A DNA stretch of 64,000 bases from assembly GCA_947455595.1 (NCBI GenBank), contig CANGOP010000006.1, positions 1 through 64,000 on the forward strand. The letters run 5' to 3'. Position 1 is the stretch's first letter; each line of letters begins with the position of its first letter. The notes beneath the pieces were generated by a model. The model had not been told where the DNA came from, searched no databases, and worked only from the letters and a program-made list of their open reading frames with translations. Made by a program: the position numbers and the translations under genes. Below, piece after piece: positions 21,688 to 53,284 of the stretch. The stretch is from Gammaproteobacteria bacterium (GTDB lineage Bacteria > Pseudomonadota > Gammaproteobacteria > Steroidobacterales > Steroidobacteraceae).

Positions 21688-21743
21688 GTATTCACTCATT
21701 CGGACAACCAGCGGCGCGATACGCGCCACGGAGCCTAGATCAA

Positions 21744-29255: not shown

Positions 29256-29539
29256 GCGGCACCTCCCGGCAGTTCCGGTCGCTCACCGACCTTGTAGGTC
29301 GTGACAAAGAAATCGGTCGTTGTGTCGCGGATAGCGTTGAAGAAACGACCGCAGCCACGAGCGTGGCGCCACCGCTCGCGGAAAAGCCCGCGCGGATTCT
29401 CACGCAAGTACAGAAACTGGAGGAGATCGTCCTCCGTTGTGGTCGTCGGATCCTGCGGGCGGGCGATATGCGCCTGACCACCGTGAGCGAATTCCGGCTC
29501 GGGGCGCGGACCGCAGTAAGGGCAATGAATGACGAGCAT
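29252..29539 (-). CDS. soxD: sarcosine oxidase, delta subunit
   Basis: 95 residues beginning MLVIHCPYCGPRPEPEF; the CPYC pair with later histidine and cysteine residues (HARGCGRFFNAIRDTTTD) forms the zinc site of SoxD. Located between soxB and soxA, as in all heterotetrameric sarcosine oxidase operons. Confidence 0.95.
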   Translation of the reverse strand: MLVIHCPYCGPRPEPEFAHGGQAHIARPQDPTTTTEDDLLQFLYLRENPRGLFRERWRHARGCGRFFNAIRDTTTDFFVTTYKVGERPELPGGAA

Positions 29540-29550
29540 ATCGTAAGGCC

Positions 29551-30804: not shown

Positions 30805-33260
30805 TACGCCCTCAGATCATTGTTGTCCGGATCATATGGAGATTCGACGACGATGGTGGCTTGCTTGCGCTCGCCCAGCACCTCAATTTCGAGTTTCGTG
30901 CCCACCGCTGCGAATTCAGGCTTCACATAGCCAATCACCAGGCTCTTCTGGATCGTGTGACCAAAGTAGCCAGACGTGGCACGACCAATCATCTGGCCAT
31001 TCGCGAAGAGCGGCTCGTTGCCGAGCGGATCTGCATCTGTAATGCCGTGGACTTCAGCGGTGATGAAGCGATGTGGTACGCCGGCAGCCAACTGCTTCTC
31101 CAGAGCGTCCTTGCCAGTGAAGTGCGGCTTGTTCATACGCACAAAACGGTCGAGCGACGCTTCGAACGGCGTGTAGTCGCGCGTCAGATCGCTTCCCCAC
31201 ATCCGGTAGGACTTCTCCATACGCAGCGATTCCATCGCGCGCATGCCGACGAGGCCGAAACCGAACTCCGCGCCGGCGGCGCAGATTTGGTCGAACAAGC
31301 CATGCGCGTACTCAACCGGGAAGTGCAATTCCCAACCGAGCGAGCCGACGAAGTTGACGCGTAGCGCATAGACGTCCGTCGCGTAACCCACTTCGATGAC
31401 CTGGCTCGTGAGCCACGGGAAGGAGGCGTTGTCGAGCGGCGAATCGGTGAGCTTGGCCAAGAGGTCGCGTGCACGCGGGCCGCCGATGACAAAGCAGCCA
31501 CGCGCACCCGTGATATTGCGCATCGAGACCGATCCATCCCGCGGCAAACGCTTGTCTAAGAAGTCGTGGTCATAACGCTCGGCAGCGCCGGCGCTGACGA
31601 CGTAGTAGTGATTGTCGGCGAGCTTGGTGATCGTGAACTCGGTGCGAATGCCGCCGCGCTTCGTCAGCGCATGGCACAGAGCAATTCGACCAATCTTGGT
31701 CGGCACCTTGTTGGCCACCAGGCTATCGAGCCAGGCTTCAGCGCCAGCGCCCGTGACCTCCCACTTCGAGAATGGCGTCAGGTCGATCATGCCGACCTTT
31801 TCGCGCATCAAGCGCACTTCGTTACCGACGTGCTCGAAGTAGTTCGAACGACGGAAGCTCCAGACATCCTTTGGCTCGACGCCCTTCGGCGCAAACCACA
31901 GCGGACGCTCCCAGCCATAACGCTGACCGAACACGGCGCCGGCTTTGGCCAGCTTGTCGTAGATCGGGCTGGTTTTCGCCGGGCGCGCCGCCGGGCGCTC
32001 TTCATCCGGGTAGTGAATGGTGAACACTTCGCGGTACGTCTCTTCGTTCTTTTCGACGATGTATCGCTTCGACGTGTACGGGCCGAAGCGGCGCGGATCG
32101 GCGGAAAGCATGTCGATGCCCGGCTCGCCTTCTACGATCCACTCGGCCAATTGCCACCCCGAACCGCCGGCGGCGGTGATGCCGAAGCTGTGTCCTTCAT
32201 TGAGCCACAGGTTGCGCTTCGACCATGCCGGTCCGATCAGCGGGCTGCCATCCGGGGTGTAGGAAATTGGTCCGTTGACGATGTCCTTGATACCGCAGTG
32301 TTCCAAGGCCGGGACGCGACGCTGCGCGGCTTCGACGTACGGGAGTAAGCGCTCAAGATCGCCCTCAAATAGGCTCTTGCCGAACCAGTCAGGCACGCCG
32401 TCCGCAAAGCGTGCCGGGGCGCCATGCTCGTAGGGGCCAAGGATCCAGCCGAGGCGCTCTTCGCGCAGGTAATAGGACTTGTCCGACTCACGCAGAACGG
32501 CGAGTTCACGGCCGCCTTTGGCGCGGTACTCCTCCAGTTCCGGCGACTTGTCGTAAACGATGTACTGGTGTTCGACGGGAATGGCCGGCACGTTGATGCC
32601 GAACATCTTGCCGGTCTGACGAGCATAGTTGCCCGTTGCGCACACCACGTGTTCGCAGGTGATGACACCCTTGTTCGTGGTTAGGCGCCATTCGCCGCTC
32701 GGCAGTTGTTCAGCCGAGAGGACTTCGGTCTGCTCATAGATTTCCGCGCCGCCAGCACGAGCGCCCTTGCGCAGGGCCATGGTGAGGTCTGCCGGAGCGA
32801 TATGACCGTCGTCCGGGTGGTAGAGCGCGCCGATGATGGCCGGGGTATCGCCATGGCCACCAAGATCAACCAGCGGCCACAGCTCCTTGACCTGTTCCGG
32901 GGTGATGACTTCGAAGGGGACGCCGATGGTGTTCGCCGTGCCGCAGTACTTGTGGTACTCGTCCATACGGTCGCGGCAGGTCGCTAAGCGCAGATTGCCC
33001 GTCACGTGGAAGCTGACGTCCTGACCGGTTTCGGCCGGCAGGCGCTTGTACAAGTCCACCGAGTACTTGTGTAGCTGGCCGACCGTGTAGCTCATATTAA
33101 AGAGCGGCAACAAACCGGCTGCGTGCCACGTCGATCCCGCGGTCAGCTCCGAACGCTCGAGCAGGACGACATCCGACCAGCCTTTCTTGGTGAGGTGGTA
33201 CAGCGTGCTGACGCCGACGACACCGCCGCCGACTACAACCACCCGCGCATGGGTCTTCAT
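30804..33260 (-). CDS. dimethylglycine dehydrogenase-like flavoprotein (DMGDH family) 3, first gene of the sox operon
   Basis: 818 residues. VVVVGGGVVGVSTLYHL FAD loop, covalent-FAD histidine in AGSTWHAAGLLPLF, folate-binding GCV_T region (GMIDLTPFSKWEVTGAGAEA) and SLRMEKSYRMWGSDLTRDYT near the C-terminus. The ATG at 33260 starts directly at the conserved MKTHARV; longer readings lack homology. Position ahead of soxBDAG makes this the best candidate for the true dimethylglycine dehydrogenase, producing sarcosine for the next enzyme. The promoter region is shared with the divergent AraC-type regulator and holds three regularly spaced half-sites. Confidence 0.9.
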   Translation of the reverse strand: MKTHARVVVVGGGVVGVSTLYHLTKKGWSDVVLLERSELTAGSTWHAAGLLPLFNMSYTVGQLHKYSVDLYKRLPAETGQDVSFHVTGNLRLATCRDRMDEYHKYCGTANTIGVPFEVITPEQVKELWPLVDLGGHGDTPAIIGALYHPDDGHIAPADLTMALRKGARAGGAEIYEQTEVLSAEQLPSGEWRLTTNKGVITCEHVVCATGNYARQTGKMFGINVPAIPVEHQYIVYDKSPELEEYRAKGGRELAVLRESDKSYYLREERLGWILGPYEHGAPARFADGVPDWFGKSLFEGDLERLLPYVEAAQRRVPALEHCGIKDIVNGPISYTPDGSPLIGPAWSKRNLWLNEGHSFGITAAGGSGWQLAEWIVEGEPGIDMLSADPRRFGPYTSKRYIVEKNEETYREVFTIHYPDEERPAARPAKTSPIYDKLAKAGAVFGQRYGWERPLWFAPKGVEPKDVWSFRRSNYFEHVGNEVRLMREKVGMIDLTPFSKWEVTGAGAEAWLDSLVANKVPTKIGRIALCHALTKRGGIRTEFTITKLADNHYYVVSAGAAERYDHDFLDKRLPRDGSVSMRNITGARGCFVIGGPRARDLLAKLTDSPLDNASFPWLTSQVIEVGYATDVYALRVNFVGSLGWELHFPVEYAHGLFDQICAAGAEFGFGLVGMRAMESLRMEKSYRMWGSDLTRDYTPFEASLDRFVRMNKPHFTGKDALEKQLAAGVPHRFITAEVHGITDADPLGNEPLFANGQMIGRATSGYFGHTIQKSLVIGYVKPEFAAVGTKLEIEVLGERKQATIVVESPYDPDNNDLRA

Positions 33261-33366
33261 ATCTCTCGTTCTCCGTTCGAGTCGTTCGGGCCCTCGGCCG
33301 ACGCCGAGAGAGGCAGAATTTAACCCGGAGAGTCTAACCGTCGACAGGGTCGGCAAGGCTCTATTT

Positions 33367-33413
33367 GCGACAAATGCTGACGCAAATGCGCCAGTAGGCC
33401 GTATACTGCGACA
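33367..33413. promoter_or_regulatory. three phased half-sites between DMGDH 3 and GbdR-like gene
   Basis: Read on the minus strand, TGTCGC (33413-33408), TGGCGC (33393-33388) and TGTCGC (33372-33367) recur every 20-21 bp, two DNA turns, as expected for an AraC-family activator. The outer two lie inside a longer direct repeat, TGCGACAA-N3-CTGAC, at 33366-33381 and 33407-33422. Confidence 0.55.
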
Positions 33414-33440
33414 ACCACTGACATCCGCGGTGAAAAAGGC

Positions 33441-34436
33441 TTGAAACCGACGCTGCAACCCCGCAAGAGCCGGTTTGTCTTTCTGACACTCCCTCAATAC
33501 TCGCAGATCGCGCTCGCCAATGCCGTCGAGCCCCTGCGCATGGCCAATAACCTCTCCGGTCAATTGGCCTACGAGTGGGTGATTACGAGCCTTGACGGTC
33601 AATCAGTCTCCGCCAGCAACGGCTTGTCGCTCAGCCCGACCGTGGGTCTTGACCAAATCGGCCGGCCTGACATCGTCTTCATCTGCGGCGGGCGCAATGT
33701 TCGTGATGCCGTGACCCCGACGCTGTTGGCTGCCCTGCGCCGGCTCGCCGAGCAGGGCACCGGTCTCGGCGCCCTCTGTACTGGTGGCTATGCCCTTGCC
33801 CGGGCGGGGCTACTCGATCGCTGCCGGGCGACCATTCATTGGGAAAATGTCTCGGCCCTGCGCGAAGAGTTTCCTAGAATTATCATTTCAGATCAGGTAT
33901 TTACGATCGATCGGAATCGCTATACGGCGTCCGGTGGTGTCGCGCCGTTGGATCTGATGTTGAATCTGATCGAGTCCAAACTGGGCAGCAAGGTCGCCCA
34001 ACTGGTCTCCGAGCAATTCATCGTGGATCGCATCCGCAGCGACAAGGACCGGCAGTACGTCCCGTTGCGGGCGCAGGTGGGCGTCTCCCACCAGAGCCTG
34101 CTGAAGGTGGCGGAACTGATGGAGGCCAACGTCGAGCGGCCAATGTCTCTGGAGCGTATCGCCCAAGAGACGGGATTGTCGCGGCGTCAGATCGAACGCC
34201 TGTTCAAGCGGCACCTGAACTGCGTGCCCAAGCGCTATTACCTTGAACTGCGCCTGAAGCGCGCGCGTGAACTGCTGCTGCAGACCGCGATGCCCATCAT
34301 GGACATCACCACGGCCTGTGGCTTTCAGTCGCCGCCACACTTCTCCAAGTGCTATCGGAAGCAGTTTGGCTATCCACCGAGCGTCGAGCGTCAGTCGCCG
34401 CGACGAGTGGCGCCCGGCTCTGAAACCGCAGCCTGA
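33441..34436 (+). CDS. GlxA/GbdR-like AraC-family transcriptional regulator
   Basis: 331 residues. N-terminal DJ-1/PfpI-like sensor domain (FVFLTLPQYSQIALANAVE to about 190, with LGALCTGGYALARAG), then a C-terminal double HTH (MSLERIAQETGLSRRQIERL and ITTACGFQSPPHFSKCYRKQ). This is the architecture of GbdR, which activates betaine, dimethylglycine and sarcosine genes in Pseudomonas on sensing betaine or dimethylglycine. The start is TTG at 33441, fixed by homology of the N-terminus; its ribosome site is weak. It is divergent from the DMGDH-sox operon and upstream of the corrinoid operon, so it plausibly controls both. Confidence 0.9.
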   Translation: MKPTLQPRKSRFVFLTLPQYSQIALANAVEPLRMANNLSGQLAYEWVITSLDGQSVSASNGLSLSPTVGLDQIGRPDIVFICGGRNVRDAVTPTLLAALRRLAEQGTGLGALCTGGYALARAGLLDRCRATIHWENVSALREEFPRIIISDQVFTIDRNRYTASGGVAPLDLMLNLIESKLGSKVAQLVSEQFIVDRIRSDKDRQYVPLRAQVGVSHQSLLKVAELMEANVERPMSLERIAQETGLSRRQIERLFKRHLNCVPKRYYLELRLKRARELLLQTAMPIMDITTACGFQSPPHFSKCYRKQFGYPPSVERQSPRRVAPGSETAA

Positions 34437-34747: not shown

Positions 34748-35440
34748 ATGTCCGAGGAAGCCTTTGACCTGAACAGCCTGAACGATCAGGAACTTACCGA
34801 GCAGGTCCACGACGACCTCTATAACGGCTTGAAGGAAGAGGTCGAAGAAGCGACCCATATCTTCCTGAACCGTGGTTGGTCCGCTGAGAAGGTCCTTAAC
34901 GACGCGCTCGTCGAGGGCATGCGTATCGTCGGCATCGACTTCCGCGACGGTATCTTGTTCGTGCCTGAAGTGCTGTTGGCCGCGAACGCCATGAAGGGCG
35001 GAATGGAAATCCTCCGTCCGTTGCTCGCTGAGACCGGCGTTGAGCCGATCGGCAAGGTTGTGATCGGCACCGTCAAGGGCGACATCCACGACATCGGCAA
35101 GAATCTCGTGGCCATGATGCTCGAGGGCGCAGGCTTCGAAGTGATCGACATCGGCATCAACAATGCCGTCGAGAAGTATCTGGCCGCCATCGAAGAGCAC
35201 AAGCCGGACATCCTCGGTATGTCGGCTCTCTTGACCACGACGATGCCGTACATGAAGGTCGTTGTGGACACCCTCAAGGAACAGGGCATGCGCGACAAGT
35301 TCATCGTGCTCGTCGGTGGTGCCCCGCTCAACGAGGAATTTGGCAAGGCTGTCGGCGCCGACTCGTATTGCCGTGATGCGGCGATCGCGGTCGAGACCGC
35401 CAAGCAGCTCGTCGCCGCCCGTCGCGCCGCCGCCCACTGA
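34748..35440 (+). CDS. corrinoid protein (MtgC/MtbC-like, B12-binding)
   Basis: 230 residues. N-terminal helical B12-binding-2 domain (ILFVPEVLLAANAMKGGMEI) and C-terminal Rossmann-like cobalamin domain with the base-off signature GDIHDIGKN, where His114 would be the lower cobalt ligand, then SALLTTTMPYM and VLVGGAPLNEEFG. It carries the methyl group between MttB-type enzymes and the pterin methyltransferase. ATG 34748 is chosen for GGGAG six bases upstream and for homology; a longer in-frame reading from 34688 is unlikely. The first 40 residues are strongly acidic, in contrast to the Arg-rich tails of its presumed partners. First gene of a seven-gene operon. Confidence 0.94.
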   Translation: MSEEAFDLNSLNDQELTEQVHDDLYNGLKEEVEEATHIFLNRGWSAEKVLNDALVEGMRIVGIDFRDGILFVPEVLLAANAMKGGMEILRPLLAETGVEPIGKVVIGTVKGDIHDIGKNLVAMMLEGAGFEVIDIGINNAVEKYLAAIEEHKPDILGMSALLTTTMPYMKVVVDTLKEQGMRDKFIVLVGGAPLNEEFGKAVGADSYCRDAAIAVETAKQLVAARRAAAH

Positions 35441-35454
35441 TCGCGGAGAGCGCC

Positions 35455-36093
35455 GTGGCACCTGCGGGCCAAGTGCTCGTAATCGCCTGCGGCGCTCTGG
35501 CCAGGGAAATCACTGCGCTCAAGCGGGCCAACGTCTGGGAACACCTCACGGTGACCTGCTTGGCCCCTGAGTTGCATAACCGTCCTGAGCGGATTACCGG
35601 TGCTGTGTTGGCAGCGATTGACGAAGCGAAGAGCCAGGGCTTTGAGCGGATCGTCGTCGGATACGCGGACTGCGGCACCGGTGGCGAGTTAGATCGGGCA
35701 CTCGCGCCACTCGGGATTGAACGGTTGCCCGGTGCTCACTGCTACGAATTTTACGCCTCGACCCGACAGTTCGAAGCGCTGCACGAAGCGGAACCCGGAA
35801 CGTTCTATCTGACGGATTTTTTAGTCCGTCACTTTGATCGGCTGGTGTTTGCCTCGCTCGGCTTGGACCGTCATCCGCAACTGGCAGCCGAATATTTTCG
35901 GCACTACACGCGGGTGGTGTATCTGCGCCAAGCGCCGGATGCCGGGTTAGAGGAGGGCGCTGCGAAAGCGGCTGCCGCACTCGGGCTACCGCTTCAAGTG
36001 GTGGATACGGGATACGGCGACTTGCGCACCACGCTCGCGGACTGGACGACTCGGACGGGCATCGGCGTGGTCGCCGAGTCCGCCGCACACTGA
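35455..36093 (+). CDS. DUF1638 domain protein
   Basis: 212 residues, starting at a GTG after GGAGAG. Family segments: VLVIACGALAREITALK, CLAPELHNRPERITGAV and VVGYADCGTGGELDRAL. DUF1638 proteins have no established function; they recur near corrinoid methyltransferase genes (recalled, not checked). Conserved cysteines in IACGAL and YADCGTGG and the histidine in ELHNRPE could bind a metal or corrinoid. It lies between the corrinoid protein gene and the small 'virulence factor' gene, so a corrinoid-insertion, repair or methyl-transfer accessory role is a reasonable guess. Confidence 0.85.
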   Translation: MAPAGQVLVIACGALAREITALKRANVWEHLTVTCLAPELHNRPERITGAVLAAIDEAKSQGFERIVVGYADCGTGGELDRALAPLGIERLPGAHCYEFYASTRQFEALHEAEPGTFYLTDFLVRHFDRLVFASLGLDRHPQLAAEYFRHYTRVVYLRQAPDAGLEEGAAKAAAALGLPLQVVDTGYGDLRTTLADWTTRTGIGVVAESAAH

Positions 36094-36103
36094 GGAGATT
36101 CGG

Positions 36104-36448
36104 ATGGCGCAGTTGATCATTATCAGTTGGCGCGACATTCCCGCCCAGGTGATTGCTAAGCGTGGCCGTGAAGTCGCCAAGATCCAGTTGACCGATCGCT
36201 TTCAGGAAGCTGTCGACCGCGCAGCGATGCGCGCCGGTAAAGGCAGTTCGGATGCGTATCTCGCTGACTGGCAGCGCAGTACTCCGGCGCAATGCTCCGA
36301 TGATCTCGAAGCTGCCGCCAGTGCGGCCGCGGCAGAGATTGAAGCGCGTTATTCGGATGAAGACTTGGAGCGCATCATCCGCTCCAAGGGCATTGATGAG
36401 CACATTCAGCGCGAAGCCGAACCGAATCCCAGCGAGGGAGTTAACTGA
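36104..36448 (+). CDS. 'virulence factor' family small protein (PF13769-like)
   Basis: 114 residues with the family opening LIIISWRDIPAQVIAKRG and KIQLTDRFQEAVDRAAMRAG. Despite the Pfam name no virulence link is evident here. It overlaps the MetV-like gene by one base (TGATG), and homologues are, from memory, usually found next to MetV/MetF pairs. A structural or chaperone role for the methylene-THF reductase complex is the best guess. No cysteine cluster, signal peptide or membrane segment is visible. Confidence 0.8.
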   Translation: MAQLIIISWRDIPAQVIAKRGREVAKIQLTDRFQEAVDRAAMRAGKGSSDAYLADWQRSTPAQCSDDLEAAASAAAAEIEARYSDEDLERIIRSKGIDEHIQREAEPNPSEGVN

Positions 36449-36921
36449 TGTACGCAGTTCGTCGTTGGTCCGTTCGCCATGCGGGTGGGCTCAATCGCTT
36501 TTACAATGGTCTAGAGCGCGTGCTGGTTGCCCTTGCGCCCGTGTGGCGGGCCATTGGCTATGAGCGTCTTGAACGCCCGTTCGCCTTCCTAGAGCGTCTG
36601 GTCAAGGGCCTGTTGTTCGACTGCAAGATGTGTGGTCAGTGCGTGTTGTCATCGACGGGCATGAGTTGCTCGATGAACTGCCCAAAGAATTTGCGCAACG
36701 GTCCCTGTGGTGGCGTACGCGCCAACGGGAACTGCGAAGTGAAGCCTGAGATGCGCTGCGTCTGGGTGGAAGCGTGGACGGGCGCAGGTCGTATCAAGGG
36801 AGGTCTTGAGAAGATCGCCGTGGTTCAGTTGCCCGTGGATCGACGTCTTGAGGGCCGATCCTCCTGGCTGAAAGTGGTGCGTGAGCGCACCGAGCCACCC
36901 AAGGCGGAGGCAAAGAAATGA
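36448..36921 (+). CDS. MTHFR C-terminal-domain protein (MetV-like iron-sulfur/zinc protein)
   Basis: 157 residues; the MTHFR_C domain carries eight cysteines (59, 62, 65, 74, 78, 87, 96, 104) in CKMCGQCVLSSTGMSC, NCPKNLRNGPCGGVRANGNC and RC. In acetogens MetV partners MetF and links it to an electron carrier. It overlaps metF by 4 nt (ATGA). Here the pair probably runs in the oxidative direction, CH3-THF to CH2-THF, which with NAD(P)+ alone is unfavourable; an extra cofactor-bearing subunit would help. The short N-terminal hydrophobic stretch (VLVALAPVW) is not a convincing membrane anchor. Confidence 0.88.
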   Translation: MYAVRRWSVRHAGGLNRFYNGLERVLVALAPVWRAIGYERLERPFAFLERLVKGLLFDCKMCGQCVLSSTGMSCSMNCPKNLRNGPCGGVRANGNCEVKPEMRCVWVEAWTGAGRIKGGLEKIAVVQLPVDRRLEGRSSWLKVVRERTEPPKAEAKK

Positions 36922-37931
36922 GATTTGACGACGAGCCGACAGCAGGCGGTGCTCTGCCAATCTTGCCGGGTCATACCTCTCCTGGTCGCCTTGAGCGAGT
37001 GTTGAGAGCTGGTGGTTTTGCGATCACGACCGAACTCGCGCCGCCAGATTCGGCCGATCCTGAAGAAGTCTACCGCCGTGCCCGCGTGTTCGACGGTTAC
37101 GCCGACGCGATCAATGCGACGGATGGTTCCGGCGCGAACTGTCACATGTCCAGCTTGGCTGTATGCGCTTTGCTGACGCGCATTGGCTACGCACCTGTGA
37201 TGCAGATTTCCTGTCGTGATAAGAATCGAATCGCGATCCAAGGCGACATCCTCGGCGGTGCGGCGATGGGCGTGTGTAATATGCTCTGCCTGTCGGGTGA
37301 TGGCGTTCAGTCCGGTGATCACCCGCAGTCCAAGCCGGTTTTTGATCTCGACTCGCTGTCGCTGTTGCAAATTGGCACGACAATGCGTGACAAAAGCACC
37401 TTCCAGAGTGGCCGCAAGCTGACGGCGCCTCCCAAAGTGTTTTTCGGCGCGGCTGAAAACCCAACCGTTGTGCCACTCGAGCATCGCGCCAGCCGCCTTG
37501 CGAAGAAGGTGGCGGCGGGTGCCCAATTCATTCAGACCCAGTACGTCTATGACATGGATCGTTTACGCGACTTTATGCGCCGGGTTGAAGACCTTGGGTT
37601 GTTGGACAAAGTGTTTCTCTTGATCGGCGTGGGTCCGTTTAAGACCGCTAAGGGTGCGGAATGGATGCGCAACAATGTGCCGGGCATGCATGTGCCGGAT
37701 GCGCTGATCAAGCGACTGGCTGGTGCTGAGGATCAGGCCAAGGAAGGTCGTCAGATCTGCGTTGATCTGATCCAGGAAGCTCGCTCGATCAAGGGCGTCC
37801 ATGGTGTGCATATCATGGCTTACCGTCAGGAAGAGTCTGTTGCCGAGATCGTCGATCGATCTGGCGTGCTGGAAGGCCGGGTACCTTGGTACCCGAATCG
37901 CGATACGAACCTCGAAGGGAATTCCCCATGA
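36918..37931 (+). CDS. metF: methylenetetrahydrofolate reductase (MetF-like)
   Basis: 337 residues, FAD-dependent TIM-barrel reductase. FAITTELAPPDSADPEEV holds the conserved Glu, DAINATDGSGANCHMSSLAV the folate region, CRDKNRIAIQGDILGGAAMG the Asp/Asn contacts, and AAENP plus FIQTQYVYD complete the barrel. It interconverts CH2-THF and CH3-THF. Being overlapped on both sides, by metV and by the methyltransferase gene, ties it to catabolism of methyl groups rather than to methionine synthesis. Confidence 0.92.
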   Translation: MRFDDEPTAGGALPILPGHTSPGRLERVLRAGGFAITTELAPPDSADPEEVYRRARVFDGYADAINATDGSGANCHMSSLAVCALLTRIGYAPVMQISCRDKNRIAIQGDILGGAAMGVCNMLCLSGDGVQSGDHPQSKPVFDLDSLSLLQIGTTMRDKSTFQSGRKLTAPPKVFFGAAENPTVVPLEHRASRLAKKVAAGAQFIQTQYVYDMDRLRDFMRRVEDLGLLDKVFLLIGVGPFKTAKGAEWMRNNVPGMHVPDALIKRLAGAEDQAKEGRQICVDLIQEARSIKGVHGVHIMAYRQEESVAEIVDRSGVLEGRVPWYPNRDTNLEGNSP

Positions 37932-38854
37932 CCGATACCGTGATCAGTTCGGCGACCAAAGAGGTCGTCATCGGCTTTAATCGCCCATTCGTCATTATTG
38001 GCGAGCGCATTAACCCGACCGGCCGCAAGATTCTTGCCGCTGAGATGGCAGCGGGAGATTTCTCTCGCGTGATTTCCGACGCCTTGGCCCAGATTGAGGC
38101 TGGCGCCCACATGCTCGACGTCAACGCGGGTATCCCGTTGGCGGATGAGCCGGCCATTCTGGCGCAGGCCGTGCAGCTGGTGCAGTCGATCACCGACGTG
38201 CCGCTGTCGATCGACTCGTCGATCGTCGCCGCGCTCGAAGCCGGTCTGTCGGTCTACAAGGGCAAGGCCCTCGTGAACTCCGTGACGGGCGAAGAGGATC
38301 GCCTGGAGACCGTGCTGCCGCTCGTGAAGAAGTACGGCGCTGCCGTTGTCGCCATTTCGAACGACGAAACCGGCATCTCTGAAGATCCGGATGTCCGCTT
38401 CGAAGTGGCCAAGCGCATTGTCCATCGCGCCATGGACCACGGCATCCCGGCCAGCGACGTGGTCGTTGACCCGCTCGTCATGCCGATCGGCGCGATCAAC
38501 CAGGCCGGCGTGCAGGTGATGCGCCTTGTTCACCGTCTGAAGACGGAGCTCAAGGTGAACACCACCTGCGGTGCCTCGAATGTGAGCTTTGGTTTGCCGA
38601 ACCGTCATGGCATCAATGCCGCCTTCCTGACGATGGCGATTGGCTCGGGTATGACCTCGGCCATCACCAACCCACTGCACACCGAAACCATGCAAGCGGT
38701 GATGGGTGCTGACGTCATGATGGGTCACGACCCCGACTGCATGCGTTGGATTCGTAAGTATCGCGAAGTACCCGCTCCGGGTGCCGCAGGTGCTACGGAC
38801 GGTGCGGCTCGCGGGCGTCGCGAAGGCGGTCACCGCCGTCGTCCGACGGTCTGA
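37928..38854 (+). CDS. methyl-THF:corrinoid methyltransferase, pterin-binding domain (MtgA-like)
   Basis: 308 residues. Pterin-binding TIM barrel: VIIGERINPTGRKI, GAHMLDVNAGIPLADEP, PLSIDSSIVAALEAGL and NTTCGASNVSFGLPNRHGI all match MtgA/AcsE/MtrH-type enzymes. It would move the methyl group from CH3-Co(III) on the corrinoid protein to THF. The start overlaps the metF stop (ATGA). After about residue 285 the protein ends in an Arg-rich, low-complexity tail (RGRREGGHRRRPTV) that goes beyond the barrel; similar tails occur on other members of this system. Confidence 0.92.
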   Translation: MTDTVISSATKEVVIGFNRPFVIIGERINPTGRKILAAEMAAGDFSRVISDALAQIEAGAHMLDVNAGIPLADEPAILAQAVQLVQSITDVPLSIDSSIVAALEAGLSVYKGKALVNSVTGEEDRLETVLPLVKKYGAAVVAISNDETGISEDPDVRFEVAKRIVHRAMDHGIPASDVVVDPLVMPIGAINQAGVQVMRLVHRLKTELKVNTTCGASNVSFGLPNRHGINAAFLTMAIGSGMTSAITNPLHTETMQAVMGADVMMGHDPDCMRWIRKYREVPAPGAAGATDGAARGRREGGHRRRPTV

Positions 38855-38862
38855 AGAACGCC

Positions 38863-40878
38863 ATGGCAGACGCGCTCGTCGTATTTACGCCCTCGGGAAA
38901 ACGAGGGCGTTTTGAAGTTGGCACTTCCCTGTTGTCGGCAGCCCGCTCGCTGGGGGTCGATATCGATTCCGTGTGCGGCGGGCGTGCGCTGTGCTCGCGC
39001 TGTCAGGTCGATATTCAGGTCGGCGAGTTTGCTAAGCACGGCGTTCGATCGGAGGCCTCGCATCTCACCGAGATGACGACCCCCGAGCAGCGCCTGGCTA
39101 ACCGTAAGTTGTTGGCGAGCGGCCGCCGCTTGTCCTGTCAGGCGAAGTTGACGGGCGATGTCGTCGTCGACGTGCCGGAAACCAGCCAGGTTCATCGACA
39201 GGTTGTGCGTAAGGCTGCGGAAGTTCGGGATATCGAGCTCTATCCGAGCACGACCTTGCATTACGTCGAGGTTGCTGAGCCGGACATGCACGACCCTTCG
39301 GGTGACTTCCGTCGTTTGGCGGATGCACTCGAGCGCGAGTGGGGATTGAAGAACGTCACGTGTGACCTGCCGGTCCTGCGCGTGCTGCAGCAGAGGCTGC
39401 GCGAGGGTCAATGGAAGGTGACCGTCGCGGTCCATGATCGTAATCGGTTGGTTGCGGTTTGGCCTGGCTTGCGAGAGAGCGTCTACGGTGTCGCTGTCGA
39501 CGTCGGTTCGACGACCATTGCGGCGCACTTGTGCAATCTCACCAACGGCGAGGTCGTGGCGTCGGCGGGTCTCATGAATCCTCAGATCCGCTTCGGCGAA
39601 GATCTGATGAGCCGCGTGTCGTATTCGATGATGAATCCCGGTGGCGCCGAGCAGATGACGGTCGCCGTCCGCGGTGCGCTGAGTGATTTGACGGCCGAAG
39701 TCGCCAAGATGGCGGGCATCGAGCTTGGCTCGATTCTCGAAATGACGATCGTGGGTAACCCGATCATGCATCACTTGGTGCTGGGCATTGACCCCGTCGA
39801 ATTGGGCGGTGCGCCGTTTGCTTTGGCGTTGGATGGTGCGGTGACGCTCACTGCGGCCGAACTTGGCTTCGCCATTGATCCGAGCGCTCGCGTCTATGTG
39901 CTGCCGTGCATTGCCGGCCATGTGGGCGCCGATACCGCCGGTGTCGTGTTGGCGGATCGGCCCGATCTGGCCGATCCCATTACGTTGCTCGTGGACGTCG
40001 GCACCAATGCCGAGATTGTGCTCGGAAACAAAGAGCGCCTCGTCGCGTGTTCGAGCCCGACTGGACCTGCCTTTGAAGGCGCGCAGATTTCCTGTGGGCA
40101 ACGCGCCGCTCCCGGCGCGATTGAACGCGTTCGCATTGATCCGGTCACGCTGGAGCCGCGTCTGCGCGTCATCGGTTCTGAATTGTGGTCGGATGAGCCG
40201 GGCTTCAACGAAGCGGTGGCGAAGACTGGCATTACCGGCATTTGCGGCTCGGGCATCATTGAGGTGATGGCGGAGCTGTATCTGGCCGGCATCATCAATC
40301 AGGATGGCGTCGTGGACGGTTCGCTCGCGGAACGCACGCCACGCGTCGTGCCGAATGGCCGAACCTTCGCGTACGTGCTGCACGATGGCGAGCAGCGCCT
40401 GATGATCACCCAGAATGATGTGCGTGCGATTCAGCTCGCAAAAGCCGCGCTCAATGCCGGCATTTTGTTGCTGATGGAGCGTCTGGGTGTCGAGAAGGTG
40501 GATAGGATCCGACTCGCCGGCGCGTTTGGCAGTCATATCGACGTCAAGTACGCGATGGTGCTGGGCATGATTCCGGACTGCGTGCTCTCCGAGGTGACCT
40601 CGGCCGGCAACGCCGCCGGTACGGGTGCGCGGATTGCGCTGCTGGATTCCCGTTCACGCGCGACGATCGAAGACATCGTTCGCCGTGTGGAGAAGATCGA
40701 GACAGCGATCGAACCGCGGTTCCAGGCGCACTTCGTCGATTCCATGGCGATCCCGCACAAGACGGCGCCCTATGATCAGTTGCGTCAGGCCGTCCACTTG
40801 CCCGCTCCAAAGGCAGTGACGTCCACGTCAAGCGAAGGTCGCGAACGTCGTCCGAGCCGTCGTCCCGCCCGCGCCTAA
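38863..40878 (+). CDS. corrinoid activation protein (RACE/DUF4445, ASKHA fold with 2Fe-2S domain)
   Basis: 671 residues. The N-terminal ferredoxin-like domain has Cys38, Cys44, Cys47 and Cys92 (SVCGGRALCSRCQ, LSCQAKL) for a plant-type 2Fe-2S cluster. The C-terminal ATPase part has VAVDVGSTTIAAHLCNL, LLVDVGTNAEIVLGNK, TGICGSGIIEVMAELY and RLAGAFGSHID. Proteins of this class reductively reactivate Co(II) corrinoid to Co(I) using ATP. It ends the operon 8 nt after the methyltransferase. The last 25 residues are Arg-rich (GRERRPSRRPARA). Re-activation would be especially needed in an aerobic cell, where Co(I) is easily oxidised. Confidence 0.92.
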   Translation: MADALVVFTPSGKRGRFEVGTSLLSAARSLGVDIDSVCGGRALCSRCQVDIQVGEFAKHGVRSEASHLTEMTTPEQRLANRKLLASGRRLSCQAKLTGDVVVDVPETSQVHRQVVRKAAEVRDIELYPSTTLHYVEVAEPDMHDPSGDFRRLADALEREWGLKNVTCDLPVLRVLQQRLREGQWKVTVAVHDRNRLVAVWPGLRESVYGVAVDVGSTTIAAHLCNLTNGEVVASAGLMNPQIRFGEDLMSRVSYSMMNPGGAEQMTVAVRGALSDLTAEVAKMAGIELGSILEMTIVGNPIMHHLVLGIDPVELGGAPFALALDGAVTLTAAELGFAIDPSARVYVLPCIAGHVGADTAGVVLADRPDLADPITLLVDVGTNAEIVLGNKERLVACSSPTGPAFEGAQISCGQRAAPGAIERVRIDPVTLEPRLRVIGSELWSDEPGFNEAVAKTGITGICGSGIIEVMAELYLAGIINQDGVVDGSLAERTPRVVPNGRTFAYVLHDGEQRLMITQNDVRAIQLAKAALNAGILLLMERLGVEKVDRIRLAGAFGSHIDVKYAMVLGMIPDCVLSEVTSAGNAAGTGARIALLDSRSRATIEDIVRRVEKIETAIEPRFQAHFVDSMAIPHKTAPYDQLRQAVHLPAPKAVTSTSSEGRERRPSRRPARA

Positions 40879-41000
40879 ACGCAGGCCCGGAAAACACGGA
40901 GTCTCCATCAGGCCCGATCCGGATAGGATTGGGCCTGATTCGTTTGGGCGGCTTAGAATGCCGCTGTCACATGACGTTGAGAGACCGCAGGAGACCGCGA

Positions 41001-41831
41001 ATGAGCGCACGGCAATTGGCAGACGGCTATCTTGATCACGATCAGGTTGAAACGTTTCAGCGCGATGGCGTCGTCGTTCTGCGCGGGCTGCTGAATCAGA
41101 GTGAAGTCGCACTCCTACGGTCCGGCATTGATCGCAATCTGGCGTCGCCCAGCCCACGTGCAAAAGTCGCTAGCCGCCCGGATGACCCTGGTCTCTTTAT
41201 AGAGGATTTCTGCTGCTGGTCCGAGAATCCTGCGTACGAGCAGTTCATTCGCCAGACGCCGCTCGCCGAAACGGCCGCACGCCTGACCGGCAGTCGCCAG
41301 ATTCGGCTCTATCACGATCACATGCTCACCAAAGAGTCGGGCACCCAACAGCGCACGCCCTGGCATCAAGACCAGCCTTACTACAATATCGAAGGTCAGC
41401 AGAATGTGAGCTTCTGGATCCCCGTCGATCCGGTGAGCCGCGAAGCGACGCTGGAGTTTGTCGCTGGATCCCATCGCGGGCCTTGGTTGATGCCGCGTGC
41501 TTTCATGTCATCGGAGGCCAAGTGGTTTCCGGATGGCAGCCTTGCGGAGTTGCCGCCGATTGAGGCGAATCGCGCTGACTATCCGATCGTGGGTTGGGCG
41601 ATGGAACCAGGCGATGTTCTGGCCTTCCACATGCTCGCCTTGCATGCCTCCGCGGGCGTTGAACCGGGTCGGCGCCGTCGTGTGTTTTCGTTACGCGTGA
41701 TGGGTGATGACATCACCCATGCGCCGCGGCGGTGGATGACGTCGCCCGCGTTCCCGGGCCTAGAAGAGACACTATCAGCAGGTGCGCCGATGGCGCACCC
41801 GCTGTTCCCCGTGCTTTACAGCGCGGATTGA
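41001..41831 (+). CDS. phytanoyl-CoA dioxygenase (PhyH) family protein
   Basis: 276 residues; Fe(II)/2-oxoglutarate dioxygenase fold. Probable iron ligands: His and Asp in TPWHQDQPYY and the distal His in FHMLALHASAG, with the Arg of RRRVFSLR for 2-oxoglutarate. ATG 41001 follows AGGAG by 7 nt; longer readings are unlikely. Family members hydroxylate lipids, ectoine or small amines, and hydroxylation of an N-methyl group would demethylate it. Placed between the corrinoid operon and MttB 3 (convergent, 1 nt apart). The substrate is unknown. Confidence 0.85.
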   Translation: MSARQLADGYLDHDQVETFQRDGVVVLRGLLNQSEVALLRSGIDRNLASPSPRAKVASRPDDPGLFIEDFCCWSENPAYEQFIRQTPLAETAARLTGSRQIRLYHDHMLTKESGTQQRTPWHQDQPYYNIEGQQNVSFWIPVDPVSREATLEFVAGSHRGPWLMPRAFMSSEAKWFPDGSLAELPPIEANRADYPIVGWAMEPGDVLAFHMLALHASAGVEPGRRRRVFSLRVMGDDITHAPRRWMTSPAFPGLEETLSAGAPMAHPLFPVLYSAD

Positions 41832-41832
41832 A

Positions 41833-43401
41833 TCAGACGTTCGAGTCTGGGAAAGAGCCCTTGCGCTTGGCGATGTATTCCAACAGCGCCTCGTCGGTGG
41901 CTGGGTCGAGAGCCGGTGCCTCGTATTCAGCCAACTGACGCTTCCAATTCGCATTCGCGCGGACGGCCATATCGGATGAACCTTCCGCTTCCCACTGCTC
42001 GAAACTGTTGTTATCCGTGAGCGCTGAGCGGTAGAACGCCGTCTCGAAATTAGCCTGCGTATGTGCGCAGCCTAAGAAGTGCTTGCCGGGGCCCACTTCA
42101 CGGATCGCCTCCATGGCCTGACCGTTCTCGGTCATGTCCACGCCCTGCAGGAAGGTCTGCATCATGCCGGCCTGATCGGCGTCCATGACGAACTTTTCGT
42201 AGCCCATCGATAGACCACCTTCGAGCCAGCCCGCCGTGTGCAGCACGAAGTTCACGCCCGCAAGGCAGGTGGGCAGCAAGGTATTGGCCGATTCGTAGGC
42301 CGCTTGCGCATCCGGAATTTTTGACCCGCACAATCCACCACCTGAGCGGAAGGGCACGCCGAGGCGTCGCGCGAGCGCGGCCATGACGTACAGCACGAGT
42401 GCCGGTTCCGGCGTGCCGAACGTCGGAGCGCCGGACTGCATCGATACCGACGATGCGAAGCTGCCGAAAATCACCGGTGCGCCGGGGCTAACCAACTGCG
42501 CAAACGCCATACCCGCCAGGGACTCGGCCAGCGTCTGCGCTGCCGTTCCGGCAACCGTCACCGGCGACATCGCCCCCGCGAGAATGAACGGTGTGACGAT
42601 CGTGGCCTGGTTGGCACGTGCATAGACCTTCAACGCGCCGAGCATCGTCGCATCGAACGTCATCGGAGAGTTGGCGTTGATCAGGCTGACCAGCACCGTC
42701 TTGTTACGACCCGTCGCCGGATCGATAAAGTCGTCGCCGAACGCGATCTTAGCCATCTCGACCGTATCTTCGGCTCGCTCAGGCGCGGTGACCGAGCCCA
42801 TGAACGGCTTGTCACTGTATTTGATGTGACTGTAGATCATATCGAAATGGCGCTTATTCACCGGCAAGTCGACCGGTTCACAAATGGTGCCGCCCGAGTG
42901 ATGCAGGGCTGGTGCCATGTACGCCAATTTCACGAAATTACGGAAGTCTTCGATCGTCGCGTAGCGGCGGCCATCATCCAAGTTACGAATGAATGGAGAG
43001 CCGTACGCGGGGGCGAATACGGTGTTGCGACCGCCGATTTGTACCGACCGCGCAGCGTTACGCGCATGCTGTGTGAACTCTCGCGGCGCGTGCTTCTGGA
43101 CGATTTCGCGACACATGCCGCGTGGGAAGCGGACGCGTTCGCCATCGACGGACGCACCAGCAGCCTTCCAGATTTCGAGGGCCTCGGGATCATCGCGGAA
43201 ATCGATGCCGATTTCTTCCAAGATGGTGTCGGCGTTGCGCTCAATGATCGCCAGACTTTCCTCGGACAGAACCTCGAAATAGGGTATCTGACGCGTGATG
43301 TACGGGATGGTTACCGCTGAACGGGCTGCCCGTGCTGCGCGCTTAGCCTCACGGCCACCACCGCGGCTGCGCCGCCCCGCTGCTACCTGTTGCTCGTCCA
43401 T
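41833..43401 (-). CDS. MttB-family (trimethylamine methyltransferase-like) protein 3, non-pyrrolysine
   Basis: 522 residues, no in-frame amber. Arg-rich N-terminus (residues 9-28, GRRSRGGGREAKRAARAARS), then the MttB barrel: ADTILEEIGIDFRDDPEALE, the GGTICEPVDLPVNKRHFDMI segment, AMSPVTVAGTAAQTLAESLA and HTAGWLEGGLSMGYEKFVMD. It resembles MttB 1 more than MttB 2. It is close to choV and betIBA, which import and make glycine betaine, so this paralogue is the best guess for betaine methyltransferase. It is followed convergently by the PhyH gene. Confidence 0.9.
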   Translation of the reverse strand: MDEQQVAAGRRSRGGGREAKRAARAARSAVTIPYITRQIPYFEVLSEESLAIIERNADTILEEIGIDFRDDPEALEIWKAAGASVDGERVRFPRGMCREIVQKHAPREFTQHARNAARSVQIGGRNTVFAPAYGSPFIRNLDDGRRYATIEDFRNFVKLAYMAPALHHSGGTICEPVDLPVNKRHFDMIYSHIKYSDKPFMGSVTAPERAEDTVEMAKIAFGDDFIDPATGRNKTVLVSLINANSPMTFDATMLGALKVYARANQATIVTPFILAGAMSPVTVAGTAAQTLAESLAGMAFAQLVSPGAPVIFGSFASSVSMQSGAPTFGTPEPALVLYVMAALARRLGVPFRSGGGLCGSKIPDAQAAYESANTLLPTCLAGVNFVLHTAGWLEGGLSMGYEKFVMDADQAGMMQTFLQGVDMTENGQAMEAIREVGPGKHFLGCAHTQANFETAFYRSALTDNNSFEQWEAEGSSDMAVRANANWKRQLAEYEAPALDPATDEALLEYIAKRKGSFPDSNV

Positions 43402-43461: not shown

Positions 43462-44634
43462 TCAGTTTGCGTCACTGGCTTGTTTGACCGCGCCATGGCC
43501 GCTGGCTAAGGCGCGGACGACGTCATCCGGGGTGCAAATGCCGACAATGCGATGGCCATCGAGCAGCAAGACCGGATGTCCACTGGACTGCTGCAAAGCG
43601 ATCAGCGTGCGCAGGGGGGTGTCGATCGGCGCGCAGGGCAGTTCAACCGGCCCGTCGTCGTTGCTCACGGCCAGTTCGCCGCAGGCACCCCAAACCCCCT
43701 GATAGCGCCCAGCAAGGCGGTAGGGCCCGGCGATGCCGTCCGGTGCCGCCACCGGCGTCATAACCATGTGGCCGCGCAAGACGGTCAACGGGTTCATGTG
43801 GCGAACAAATTCCGTGACATATGTGCCCTGTGGGCGCAGCACGATGTCTTCTGGGGTGCCGGTTTGCACGATGCGCCCGCCGTCTAAAACGGAGATTCGA
43901 TCGCCGATTCGCAGCGCCTCGTCAAGATCATGCGTGACGAACAGGATCGTTTTGCGCAGCGTCCGCTGGAGTGCGACGAGTTCATCCTGAAGCTTGGTGC
44001 GGATCAAGGGATCCAATGCGGAAAACGGTTCGTCCATGAGCAGGATGTCGGCATCGGTTGCGAAAGCGCGCGCTAAACCCACGCGCTGCTGCATCCCCCC
44101 GGATAATTCGCTGACATCGTGCTCCGCCCACTGAGTCAGGCCGACCAATTCGAGCTTTTCGTCCACCCGCTGACGGCGTTGATCGGCCGATTCCCCGCGC
44201 AACTCAAGCCCAAGGCCCACGTTGTCCCGCACGGTTCGCCACGGCAGTAGGCCGAATTGCTGAAACATCATGGCTACGCCGCCACGACGAATTTCCCGCA
44301 GGGTCGTCATATCGCAGCGGGCGACGTTGACCTTTTCGCCTCGATGCGACACCCAAACATCCCCTCGGGTCACGGGATTTAGGCCATTGGCTGCGCGCAG
44401 CAGGGTAGATTTTCCCGACCCGGATAAACCCATTAGCACGGAAATGTCGCCCGTCCGGACGGTGAGGTTGGCGCCGGCGACGCCAACCACCACGCCCGTC
44501 GACTTTAAGATGTCGGCGCGTGAATGACCGACATCTAACTGCTGCGTGGCTTCAAGCAAGCGCGCGCGCGATGCGCGCCCCGACTCGCGGGTGAATAAGA
44601 TATCAACGTCTTTAAATTCCAACGCAGTCGTCAC
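43462..44634 (-). CDS. choline/glycine betaine ABC transporter ATP-binding protein (ChoV/ProV-like), without its permease
   Basis: 390 residues. ABC domain with Walker A GLSGSGKS, signature ELSGGMQQRVGLARA, Walker B ILLMDEPFSALD and FVTHDLDEALRIGD; C-terminal CBS-like part (VLLLDGHRIVGICTPDDVV). The N-terminal 50-residue extension before Walker A (SRADILKSTG) is typical of ChoV. In Rhizobium-type choXWV operons the binding protein and permease genes come first; neither is present here, and the next gene downstream is MttB 3. It may pair with permeases elsewhere. Divergent from betI with a shared operator-like repeat, so probably choline-induced. Confidence 0.9.
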   Translation of the reverse strand: MTTALEFKDVDILFTRESGRASRARLLEATQQLDVGHSRADILKSTGVVVGVAGANLTVRTGDISVLMGLSGSGKSTLLRAANGLNPVTRGDVWVSHRGEKVNVARCDMTTLREIRRGGVAMMFQQFGLLPWRTVRDNVGLGLELRGESADQRRQRVDEKLELVGLTQWAEHDVSELSGGMQQRVGLARAFATDADILLMDEPFSALDPLIRTKLQDELVALQRTLRKTILFVTHDLDEALRIGDRISVLDGGRIVQTGTPEDIVLRPQGTYVTEFVRHMNPLTVLRGHMVMTPVAAPDGIAGPYRLAGRYQGVWGACGELAVSNDDGPVELPCAPIDTPLRTLIALQQSSGHPVLLLDGHRIVGICTPDDVVRALASGHGAVKQASDAN

Positions 44635-44769: not shown

Positions 44770-45456
44770 ATGATTACATTAGAAAAAACGCCGTCTATTG
44801 GTGATCAAAAGCGGCGCCTTTGTCCACCCGTAGGGCGTCCGCCGCGGCGCCCTTATGTGACCAGCCTGCATCGTGGCGATGATGCGCGTCGCCAGCAACT
44901 GATCGAGGTCGCGATCGACTGCTTGGCGGATGGCGGGTTGGCGGGAGGAACCCTGGCGCAGATAGCCGGTCGCGCGGGTGTATCGGTCGGACTGATCGCA
45001 CATTACTTCGGCGACAAGGATGGCCTCCTGGAGGCTGCCTTTCGCACGCTCACCCGACGAGTGCATGCCGCGGTGTGCGAGCAGACGACTCAAGCGAGAG
45101 ATCCGCGGGCGCGTGTCCTCGCGATCGTGAATGCTCACCTCGCGCCTGAGGAATTCAACCCACGGACCGCGAACGCGTGGCTAGCTTGTTGGGGTGGCGT
45201 CTTACACGTTCCTTGTCTGCGACGCGTGCAGCGCGCCTATCAGCGCCGCATGCTCTCGAATTTGCGGTACCGGTTGAGTCAGTGTCTCCCAACGGCACAG
45301 GCCTACTCGGCGGCAGCCATGATCGCGGCGATGATCGATGGCATCTGGTTGCGCGCCGCGCTGTCGAATTGGCAGGAGGCGGACAGCGAGGCGGCACGCG
45401 CTTTGTTAAGCGAGTTTATTGACGGACGCCTCCAGGGCGCTCCGACATCACATTGA
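44770..45456 (+). CDS. betI: TetR-family choline-responsive repressor BetI
   Basis: 228 residues. N-terminal HTH (TLAQIAGRAGVSVGLIAHYF) and the BetI-specific ligand domain with FNPRTANAWLACWGG and MIAAMIDGIWLRAALS. Represses the bet genes until choline is present. Followed by betB 16 nt later and then betA, the usual betIBA order. The N-terminus is about 30 residues longer than E. coli BetI, so a downstream start is possible (GTG or TTG), but an ATG at 44770 is the first available. Confidence 0.92.
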   Translation: MITLEKTPSIGDQKRRLCPPVGRPPRRPYVTSLHRGDDARRQQLIEVAIDCLADGGLAGGTLAQIAGRAGVSVGLIAHYFGDKDGLLEAAFRTLTRRVHAAVCEQTTQARDPRARVLAIVNAHLAPEEFNPRTANAWLACWGGVLHVPCLRRVQRAYQRRMLSNLRYRLSQCLPTAQAYSAAAMIAAMIDGIWLRAALSNWQEADSEAARALLSEFIDGRLQGAPTSH

Positions 45457-46879: not shown

Positions 46880-46889
46880 GGATAGATCC

Positions 46890-51470: not shown

Positions 51471-51492
51471 CTGTTATTTCAGGAGATGTTGA

Positions 51493-51891: not shown

Positions 51892-51902
51892 AGGAGTCTC
51901 CC

Positions 51903-53282: not shown

Positions 53283-53284
53283 AC

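What the first reader, a model, noticed from the sequence alone, without database searches (positions are those of the whole stretch)
34748..40878. Complete corrinoid-dependent methyl-transfer module inside an aerobic-type choline/betaine catabolic island
Seen: one tight operon codes for a B12-binding protein, DUF1638, a PF13769-like protein, MetV, MetF, an MtgA-like pterin methyltransferase and a RACE activase; three MttB homologues, three DMGDH-like enzymes, soxBDAG, betIBA, folD and gcvTHPP surround it. Known: MtgB/MtgC/MtgA act on glycine betaine in anaerobes such as Desulfitobacterium; aerobes usually use Rieske GbcAB or BHMT for the first methyl group. Inference: here the first demethylation is B12-dependent and feeds methyl-THF into oxidation, while later methyl groups leave oxidatively. 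A full choline-to-CO2 route with this hybrid logic would be new or little described.
Basis: partly seen in the sequence, partly recalled or inferred. Interest (0 to 1): 0.92.

Follow-up and report, generated by a model that had tools for sequence, protein, structure and literature searches.

The report
Vitamin B12-dependent betaine demethylation operon
An uncultured bacterium with air-breathing enzymes carries a vitamin B12-based machine that very probably strips a methyl group from glycine betaine and also makes methionine; the same kind of machine was described in other bacteria in 2025, so this is a well-preserved new example with a few unexplained extra parts.

Summary
A tight seven-gene operon (34748-40878) encodes a corrinoid protein, DUF1638, PF13769, MetV, MetF, a pterin methyltransferase and a RACo-type activase, among mttB, betIBA, DMGDH-like, soxBDAG, folD and gcvTHPP genes.

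The proposed mechanism is the best supported one but is not new. It is the aerobic MtgBCD(E) system of Mausz et al. 2025 (PMC12478193; R. pomeroyi mutants), related to the split methionine synthase of Price et al. 2018. Sinorhizobium meliloti and Azoarcus carry the same seven genes. The genome fits: no MetH activation domain, no MetE, an MtgE/Bmt orthologue, no GbcA above cut-off, eight MttB proteins, one corrinoid methyl carrier. 'MtgA-like' should read MtgD.

Not found described in what I could read: (a) the operon's MetF, paired with MetV, is the genome's only detected methylene-THF reductase; 13 of 25 MttB+/MetH- genomes show only this class. (b) PF13769, named 'virulence factor', is fused to the corrinoid activase in Terrarubrum. 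(c) Among 60 genomes, MttB and MetH largely exclude each other. New member of a known kind.

The parts
34748..35440 (+). corrinoid protein MtgC
   Evidence: PF02607 + PF02310; 73% to S. meliloti, 84% to Azoarcus; tree. Longest ORF starts at 34688
35455..36093 (+). DUF1638 protein, inferred helper of corrinoid reactivation
   Evidence: PF07796; P. inhibens homologue needed for methionine synthesis
36104..36448 (+). PF13769 protein ('virulence factor'), inferred partner of the activase
   Evidence: fused to RACo in L126
36448..36921 (+). MetV, Fe-S/Zn partner of MetF (cofactors inferred)
   Evidence: PF12225; eight conserved Cys
36918..37931 (+). MetF, methylene-THF reductase of the class paired with MetV
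   Evidence: PF02219; only MTHFR detected in the genome
37928..38854 (+). MtgD, corrinoid:THF methyltransferase
   Evidence: PF00809; NCBIfam PRK07535 371.6 bits, cut-off 259; PDB hits MetH and MeTr
38863..40878 (+). RACo-type reductive activase of corrinoid proteins
   Evidence: four Pfam domains; 3zyy 312 bits
33441..34436 (+). GbdR-like AraC-type regulator
   Evidence: 398.4 bits, below the cut-off of 480
40929..41831 (+). PhyH-family dioxygenase, role unknown
41833..43401 (-). MttB-family protein, best candidate for the betaine methyltransferase MtgB
43462..44634 (-). choline-type ABC transporter ATPase
   Evidence: TIGR03415 475.9 bits, just below cut-off 483.75
44770..45456 (+). BetI-type regulator
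45473..46879 (+). BetB betaine-aldehyde dehydrogenase
46752..48551 (+). BetA choline dehydrogenase (longest ORF)
30804..33602 (-). DMGDH-like enzyme (longest ORF)
   Evidence: 80% identical to the Azoarcus protein near its operon
19219..21687 (+). DMGDH-like enzyme
21669..24167 (+). DMGDH-like enzyme
29551..30804 (-). SoxB
29255..29551 (-). SoxD
26250..29255 (-). SoxA
25709..26257 (-). SoxG
15376..16257 (+). FolD
50379..54769 (+). gcvT, gcvH, gcvPA, gcvPB
6724..8316 (-). MttB-family protein, other amine (inferred)
13570..15174 (+). divergent MttB-family protein

Best explanation
The operon is the core of an aerobic MtgBCD-type quaternary-amine demethylase that shares its corrinoid protein with a split methionine synthase. 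An MttB-family protein (best candidate 41833-43401) moves a methyl group from glycine betaine to cob(I)alamin on MtgC. MtgD passes it to tetrahydrofolate. MetF with MetV oxidises methyl-THF to methylene-THF, and FolD continues. RACo rescues cob(II)alamin with ATP and a reductant; DUF1638 and PF13769 assist this step. Dimethylglycine and sarcosine are then demethylated oxidatively by DMGDH-like and SoxBDAG enzymes, and glycine enters GcvTHP. The same MtgC and MtgD, with MtgE/Bmt encoded on another contig, make methionine in place of MetH. Shown here: gene content, order, orthology, and no MetH or MetE detected in this incomplete assembly. Inferred: substrates, direction of flux, electron acceptors, and the roles of DUF1638 and PF13769.
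For: Domain content. Orthologues in S. meliloti, where Mausz et al. name mtgBCDE: MtgC 73%, MtgD 64%, RACo 60%, MttB41833 70% identity; Azoarcus MtgC 84%, MtgD 84%. MttB41833 scores 444 bits to 2qne and 443 to 9yce (titled glycine betaine methyltransferase) but 137 to 7xcl (titled trimethylamine methyltransferase). In a tree of 23 corrinoid domains the window protein lies with the 15 other proteobacterial ones (93/94), apart from MetH and four others. Own genome: no PF02965, no PF01717, one methyl-carrier corrinoid protein (the other PF02607 hit is a MerR regulator), a Bmt-type gene, eight MttB, two COX1. PF02965 is missing in 25 of 29 MttB+ genomes and present in 27 of 31 MttB- genomes (Fisher 1.2e-8; one genome per genus: missing in 11 of 13 against 2 of 22, 1.2e-5). 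mtgC and mtgD mutants of R. pomeroyi lose growth on betaine even with methionine (PMC12478193).
Against: No experiment in this organism; the assembly is 87.7% complete, so absences are provisional. Two Rieske proteins on C25 have GbcA as best NCBIfam match, though far below cut-off, in a cluster with a BetI-like regulator, an aldehyde dehydrogenase and a GMC oxidoreductase. Purified P. inhibens Bmt made methionine from betaine in vitro without cobalamin (PMC12366255). A second homocysteine-methyltransferase-like protein on C28 (121.5 bits to PRK09485, cut-off 215) could give another route to methionine. Four of 29 MttB+ genomes keep MetH and four of 31 MttB- genomes lack PF02965. The tree has long branches and 3 of 20 inner branches are starred. 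The substrate of MttB41833 is inferred from similarity.
Confidence: 0.85

Rival explanations
1. The operon is mainly the methionine synthase of the cell. The MttB proteins feed it methyl groups from quaternary amines other than betaine, and betaine loses its first methyl group by another route.
For: No MetH activation domain and no MetE were detected, so the cell probably needs this machine for methionine. Eight MttB proteins share one carrier. The other seven are 27-57% identical to MttB41833.
Against: MttB41833 is 70% identical to S. meliloti MtgB and lies 1 kb from the operon, beside a GbdR-like regulator, bet genes, DMGDH-like genes and soxBDAG. R. pomeroyi mtgC mutants fail on betaine even with methionine.
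Confidence: 0.08
2. Betaine is demethylated directly by the Bmt-type protein on contig 16, a betaine-homocysteine methyltransferase, and the corrinoid operon serves methionine and other amines.
For: The protein passes NCBIfam's betaine-homocysteine methyltransferase model (468.1 bits, cut-off 338). P. inhibens Bmt used betaine in vitro (PMC12366255).
Against: It scores 155 bits to a 5-methyl-THF homocysteine methyltransferase (1q7m) and 66 to BHMT (1lt7). Mausz et al. state that its S. meliloti homologue lacks the betaine-binding residues and that the bmt mutant of an earlier study grew on betaine when methionine was supplied. It lies on another contig.
Confidence: 0.04
3. An oxygenase route is used: one of the two tandem Rieske proteins on contig 25 is a diverged betaine monooxygenase.
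For: Best NCBIfam match of both is GbcA (150.8 and 145.4 bits); the neighbourhood holds a BetI-like regulator and an aldehyde dehydrogenase.
Against: Both are far below the GbcA cut-off of 670. None of the 11 other ORFs tiled in that 16 kb stretch matched a GbcB-type reductase family (8, 3; two of the 11 matched nothing).
Confidence: 0.03

Closest known systems
Aerobic MtgBCDE of Ruegeria pomeroyi and S. meliloti (Mausz et al. 2025, PMC12478193)
   Same: Same clade of corrinoid protein (S. meliloti tested here), same type of pterin methyltransferase, MttB-type methyltransferase, Bmt-type MtgE, RamA-like activase, DUF1638, MetH not detected. S. meliloti strain Ak57 has the same seven core genes in the same order, including PF13769 and MetV, with small genes in between.
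   Different: R. pomeroyi has MetF2 in addition to a MetF; here one MTHFR, paired with MetV, was detected. Whether R. pomeroyi has MetV was not tested. In R. pomeroyi the genes are scattered; here they form one operon.
Split methionine synthase of Phaeobacter inhibens (Price et al. 2018, PMC5764234)
   Same: Separate homocysteine, pterin and corrinoid proteins with a RamA-like protein and DUF1638.
   Different: The passages read concern methionine only, not betaine; genes are less clustered by their locus tags.
MtgBCA of Desulfitobacterium hafniense
   Same: MttB-type methyltransferase, corrinoid protein, transfer to tetrahydrofolate.
   Different: MtgA is not among the PDB relatives of the window protein. 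The corrinoid protein misses NCBIfam's MtgC cut-offs (207.7 of 370, 170.6 of 310). Anaerobe.
MetVF-type (type II) methylene-THF reductase of acetogens (PMC8760232, passages)
   Same: MetV next to MetF, no RnfC2 or Hdr gene in the operon; eight Cys kept in MetV.
   Different: In an organism with cytochrome oxidase genes, and expected to run mainly towards oxidation (inferred).

Membership tests
Aerobic MtgBCD(E) demethylase / split methionine synthase | stand-alone corrinoid protein of the aerobe clade | tested here: met
   PF02607+PF02310; 15 of 137 plasmid records match at 60% identity or more, all 15 listed ones Pseudomonadota at 69-84%, the five next listed at most 52%; grouped 93/94. R. 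pomeroyi MtgC itself was not compared
Aerobic MtgBCD(E) demethylase / split methionine synthase | PF00809 pterin methyltransferase MtgD | tested here: met
   (64% to S. meliloti)
Aerobic MtgBCD(E) demethylase / split methionine synthase | PF06253 MtgB | tested here: met
   41833-43401, 70% to S. meliloti; substrate not tested
Aerobic MtgBCD(E) demethylase / split methionine synthase | MtgE (PF02574, Bmt type) and usual loss of MetH | tested here: met
   C16:22049-22879; no PF02965; assembly 87.7% complete
Aerobic MtgBCD(E) demethylase / split methionine synthase | RamA-like activase and DUF1638 | tested here: met
Aerobic MtgBCD(E) demethylase / split methionine synthase | needed for growth on betaine and for methionine | not testable with these tools
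   shown in R. pomeroyi
D. hafniense MtgBCA | MtgA homologue | tested here: not met
   MtgA structures 6SJ8/6SK4 not among 17 hits at E 1e-5
D. hafniense MtgBCA | corrinoid protein over NCBIfam MtgC cut-off | tested here: not met
   207.7 of 370 and 170.6 of 310
Pyrrolysine MttB | in-frame UAG read as pyrrolysine | tested here: not met
   all eight genes are open without stops inside; at the first position of one PYLIS_3 hit the codon is ATG
GbcAB | GbcA over NCBIfam cut-off | tested here: not met
   0 of 4 Rieske proteins; best 150.8 of 670
Betaine-homocysteine methyltransferase | family model | tested here: met
   468.1 bits, cut-off 338
Betaine-homocysteine methyltransferase | betaine-binding residues of human BHMT | not tested
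   Mausz et al. report them missing in the S. meliloti homologue
MetVF-type MTHFR | MetV beside MetF with conserved cysteines | tested here: met
   PF12225; eight Cys kept in at least 95% of 80 aligned rows
MetVF-type MTHFR | electron partner other than NAD(P)H | not testable with these tools
   needs the purified enzyme

The most novel reading that the evidence does not exclude
In this lineage one MetVF-type reductase is the only bridge between methylene-THF and methyl-THF. It must run both ways, oxidising methyl groups from osmolytes and supplying them for methionine when no osmolyte is present; or else the cells depend on methylated osmolytes for the methyl group of methionine. PF13769, misnamed a virulence factor, is a dedicated partner of the corrinoid activase, as its natural fusion to RACo in Terrarubrum suggests.
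Probability: 0.4. Interest if true: 0.55.

Novelty: new member of a known kind. Interest (0 to 1): 0.4.

Why it matters
It extends the aerobic corrinoid route for glycine betaine to a proteobacterial lineage outside the marine groups studied (the words freshwater and Steroidobacter do not occur in the main text of Mausz et al.), with the choline-to-glycine gene set in one island. In 60 genomes it gives independent genomic support for the proposal that this machine replaces MetH. It points to two testable gaps: the electron acceptor and direction of MetVF in a cell with cytochrome oxidase, and the role of PF13769 and DUF1638 in corrinoid activation.

Tried and rejected
Predicted structures of DUF1638 (mean pLDDT 81.0) and PF13769 (83.5) found no PDB match at E <= 0.001. 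The best DUF1638 match is CobK, E 0.0053, TM 0.33; I draw nothing from it. PDB sequence searches found no relative of MetV (E up to 0.1), MetF (1e-5) or DUF1638 (1), and six chance-level matches for PF13769. No 16S gene was found in the assembly, so the organism is placed only by its nearest named loci: metagenome bins labelled Proteobacteria, and among the next ones Steroidobacteraceae, Comamonadaceae and Gammaproteobacteria. A lake habitat is my guess from such names, not a result. Promoter and terminator scans did not exceed shuffles. The pyrrolysine reading was rejected. The place of PF13769 before MetVF first suggested a reductase partner; the RACo fusion argues for the activase. In Pseudorhodobacter, PF13769 is followed by a 312-aa ORF and then MtgD; I first took that ORF for a MetF-like protein, but it has no Pfam match at 1e-5, so it remains unidentified. 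Not tested: B12 synthesis genes, steps after FolD, betaine-binding residues.
Full report
What is there. The seven genes at 34748-40878 were confirmed by Pfam and, for four of them (corrinoid protein, MetF, MtgD, RACo), by NCBIfam matches. They are packed with gaps of 14, 10, -1, -4, -4 and 8 bases. Upstream lies an AraC-type regulator whose best match is GbdR, the choline-metabolism regulator (398.4 bits, cut-off 480). Downstream lie a PhyH-family gene and, on the other strand, an MttB gene (41833-43401), with a choline-type ABC ATPase gene next to it. The rest of the island is as described: three MttB genes, three DMGDH-like genes, soxBDAG, betIBA, folD, gcvTHPP. A tandem glycine riboswitch precedes gcvT.

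Conservation. MetF was used to fetch 80 loci from public genomes, the best of 385 confirmed candidates. All seven genes, collinear, are in 65 of 80; the other 15 are partial but collinear. Record titles include Comamonadaceae such as Rhodoferax and Polaromonas, Steroidobacteraceae and unnamed proteobacterial bins. Among annotated plasmid records, Azoarcus sp. KH32C and S. meliloti Ak57 hold the same seven genes in the same order; the S. meliloti set is looser, with small genes between. Paracoccus methylovorus has six of them, without PF13769.

Mechanism. The order of methyl transfer follows from the families. MttB41833 is closer to the betaine methyltransferase entries 2qne and 9yce (444 and 443 bits) than to the trimethylamine methyltransferase entry 7xcl (137 bits), and 70% identical to the S. 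meliloti MttB protein beside mtgC. The pterin protein belongs with MetH and MeTr, not with MtgA of D. [quoted passage not shown]). The activase matches 3zyy, an iron-sulfur protein (RACo, name recalled), along residues 1-633 (312 bits). MetV keeps eight cysteines in at least 95% of 80 rows. Type II MetVF enzymes of acetogens carry Fe-S clusters and were not found to use NAD(P)H in vitro (PMC8760232, passages).

The rest of the genome. The assembly (3.04 Mb, 60 contigs, 87.7% complete) has eight MttB proteins. It has two PF02607 proteins; the second is a MerR-type regulator, which leaves one methyl carrier. It has no MetH activation domain, no MetE-type domain, two PF02574 proteins of which one is 60% identical to S. 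meliloti Bmt, four Rieske proteins none of which reaches the GbcA cut-off, two COX1 and one MTHFR, the window's own. Three of the other MttB genes, on C5, C39 and C8, have a DMGDH-like gene directly beside them, and two of these clusters also carry a SoxA-like gene, as if B12-dependent and oxidative demethylation were paired for several amines. A search of the held library for MttB with dimethylglycine dehydrogenase and corrinoid gave one paper, on a cold seep community (listing only).

Relatives. In 60 genomes (the window's own, 14 others of its genus, the rest of its family and order), 29 have MttB. PF02965, the MetH activation domain, is absent in 25 of these 29 and present in 27 of the 31 others (Fisher 1.2e-8). 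Among 51 genomes at least 90% complete and at most 5% contaminated the figures are 21 of 24 and 25 of 27; with one such genome per genus (35 genera), 11 of 13 lack it against 2 of 22. Exceptions: G019, G042, G053 and G056 have both; G015, G021, G035 and G036 have neither. Related genomes are not independent, so the P values are guides. Of the 25 MttB+/MetH- genomes, 13 have only the low-scoring MTHFR class to which the window MetF belongs (100-125 bits), 9 have a canonical MetF, and 3 have neither. I set this class by score; a MetV neighbour was not checked in these genomes beyond the window. Four MttB- genomes (G015, G018, G024, G036) also have this class.

PF13769 and DUF1638. In Terrarubrum flagellatum, mtgC and DUF1638 are followed by one 760-residue protein that carries PF13769 at residues 8-92, then part of a Fer2 domain and the three RACo domains. 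This is one case; no fusion was seen in the other loci examined. A natural fusion suggests joint function, so PF13769 probably helps the corrinoid activase. All eight plasmid records that hold PF13769 also hold the corrinoid protein at 69% identity or more. No paper in the held library contains the string PF13769, and three contain DUF1638. Price et al. had no specific proposal for DUF1638, while they and Mausz et al. link it to cobalamin reactivation (PMC5764234 passages; PMC12478193).

Compared with what is known. Mausz et al. 2025 (PMC12478193; [quoted passage not shown] pomeroyi. They reported colocated genes in S. meliloti and in marine Alpha-, Gamma- and Deltaproteobacteria, frequent absence of MetH, and up to seven mttB-type genes. 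The words MetV and virulence do not occur in its main text; its figures and supplements were not available to me, so these genes may be drawn there. A 2025 study found that P. inhibens Bmt makes methionine from betaine in vitro (PMC12366255, abstract and one section), so the role of the Bmt-type gene is contested. I therefore file the window as a new member of a known kind.

Limits. Substrates, direction of MetVF, and the roles of PF13769 and DUF1638 are inferred. Absences rest on an incomplete assembly, though near-complete relatives mostly agree for MetH.

Noticed in passing
L126:7299-9581 (Terrarubrum flagellatum plasmid NZ_CP091854.1): One 760-aa ORF annotated 'virulence factor' is PF13769 fused to a RACo-type corrinoid activase, directly after mtgC and DUF1638.
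   Followed up: partly
window 50114-50304: Tandem glycine riboswitch aptamers upstream of gcvT.
   Followed up: no
window 14668-14767 (+) and 42234-42332 (-): Rfam PYLIS_3 (pyrrolysine insertion element of mttB) scores just over its cut-off inside two mttB genes that have no in-frame stop; it seems to detect mttB coding sequence rather than pyrrolysine use.
   Followed up: partly
window 4961-8316: A fatty-acid-desaturase-family gene, a phosphonate-type binding protein gene and an MttB gene in a row; a desaturase and a PhnD-type pair also stands beside mtgC in L126.
   Followed up: no
L020, L022, L023: Three of the other MttB genes of this genome have a DMGDH-like flavoprotein gene directly beside them; L020 and L023 also carry a SoxA-like gene.
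   Followed up: partly
L123 (Halomicrococcus gelatinilyticus plasmid): A haloarchaeal plasmid carries a corrinoid protein, an ASKHA-domain protein and DUF1638 next to FAD oxidoreductases, a similar triad in an archaeon.
   Followed up: no
L024:12312-13979: A choline-sulfatase-like gene about 3.5 kb from the MttB gene on contig 16.
   Followed up: no
L127:5317-6255 (Pseudorhodobacter turbinis plasmid): A 312-aa ORF of no recognised Pfam family lies between PF13769 and MtgD.
   Followed up: partly
window 8253-10253: TPR repeats fused to a sulfotransferase domain, the ORF overlapping the start of the MttB ORF 6724-8316.
   Followed up: no
window 16327-17001: AbiEii-type nucleotidyltransferase gene with the lowest third-position GC (0.60) of the ORFs tabulated.
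   Followed up: no
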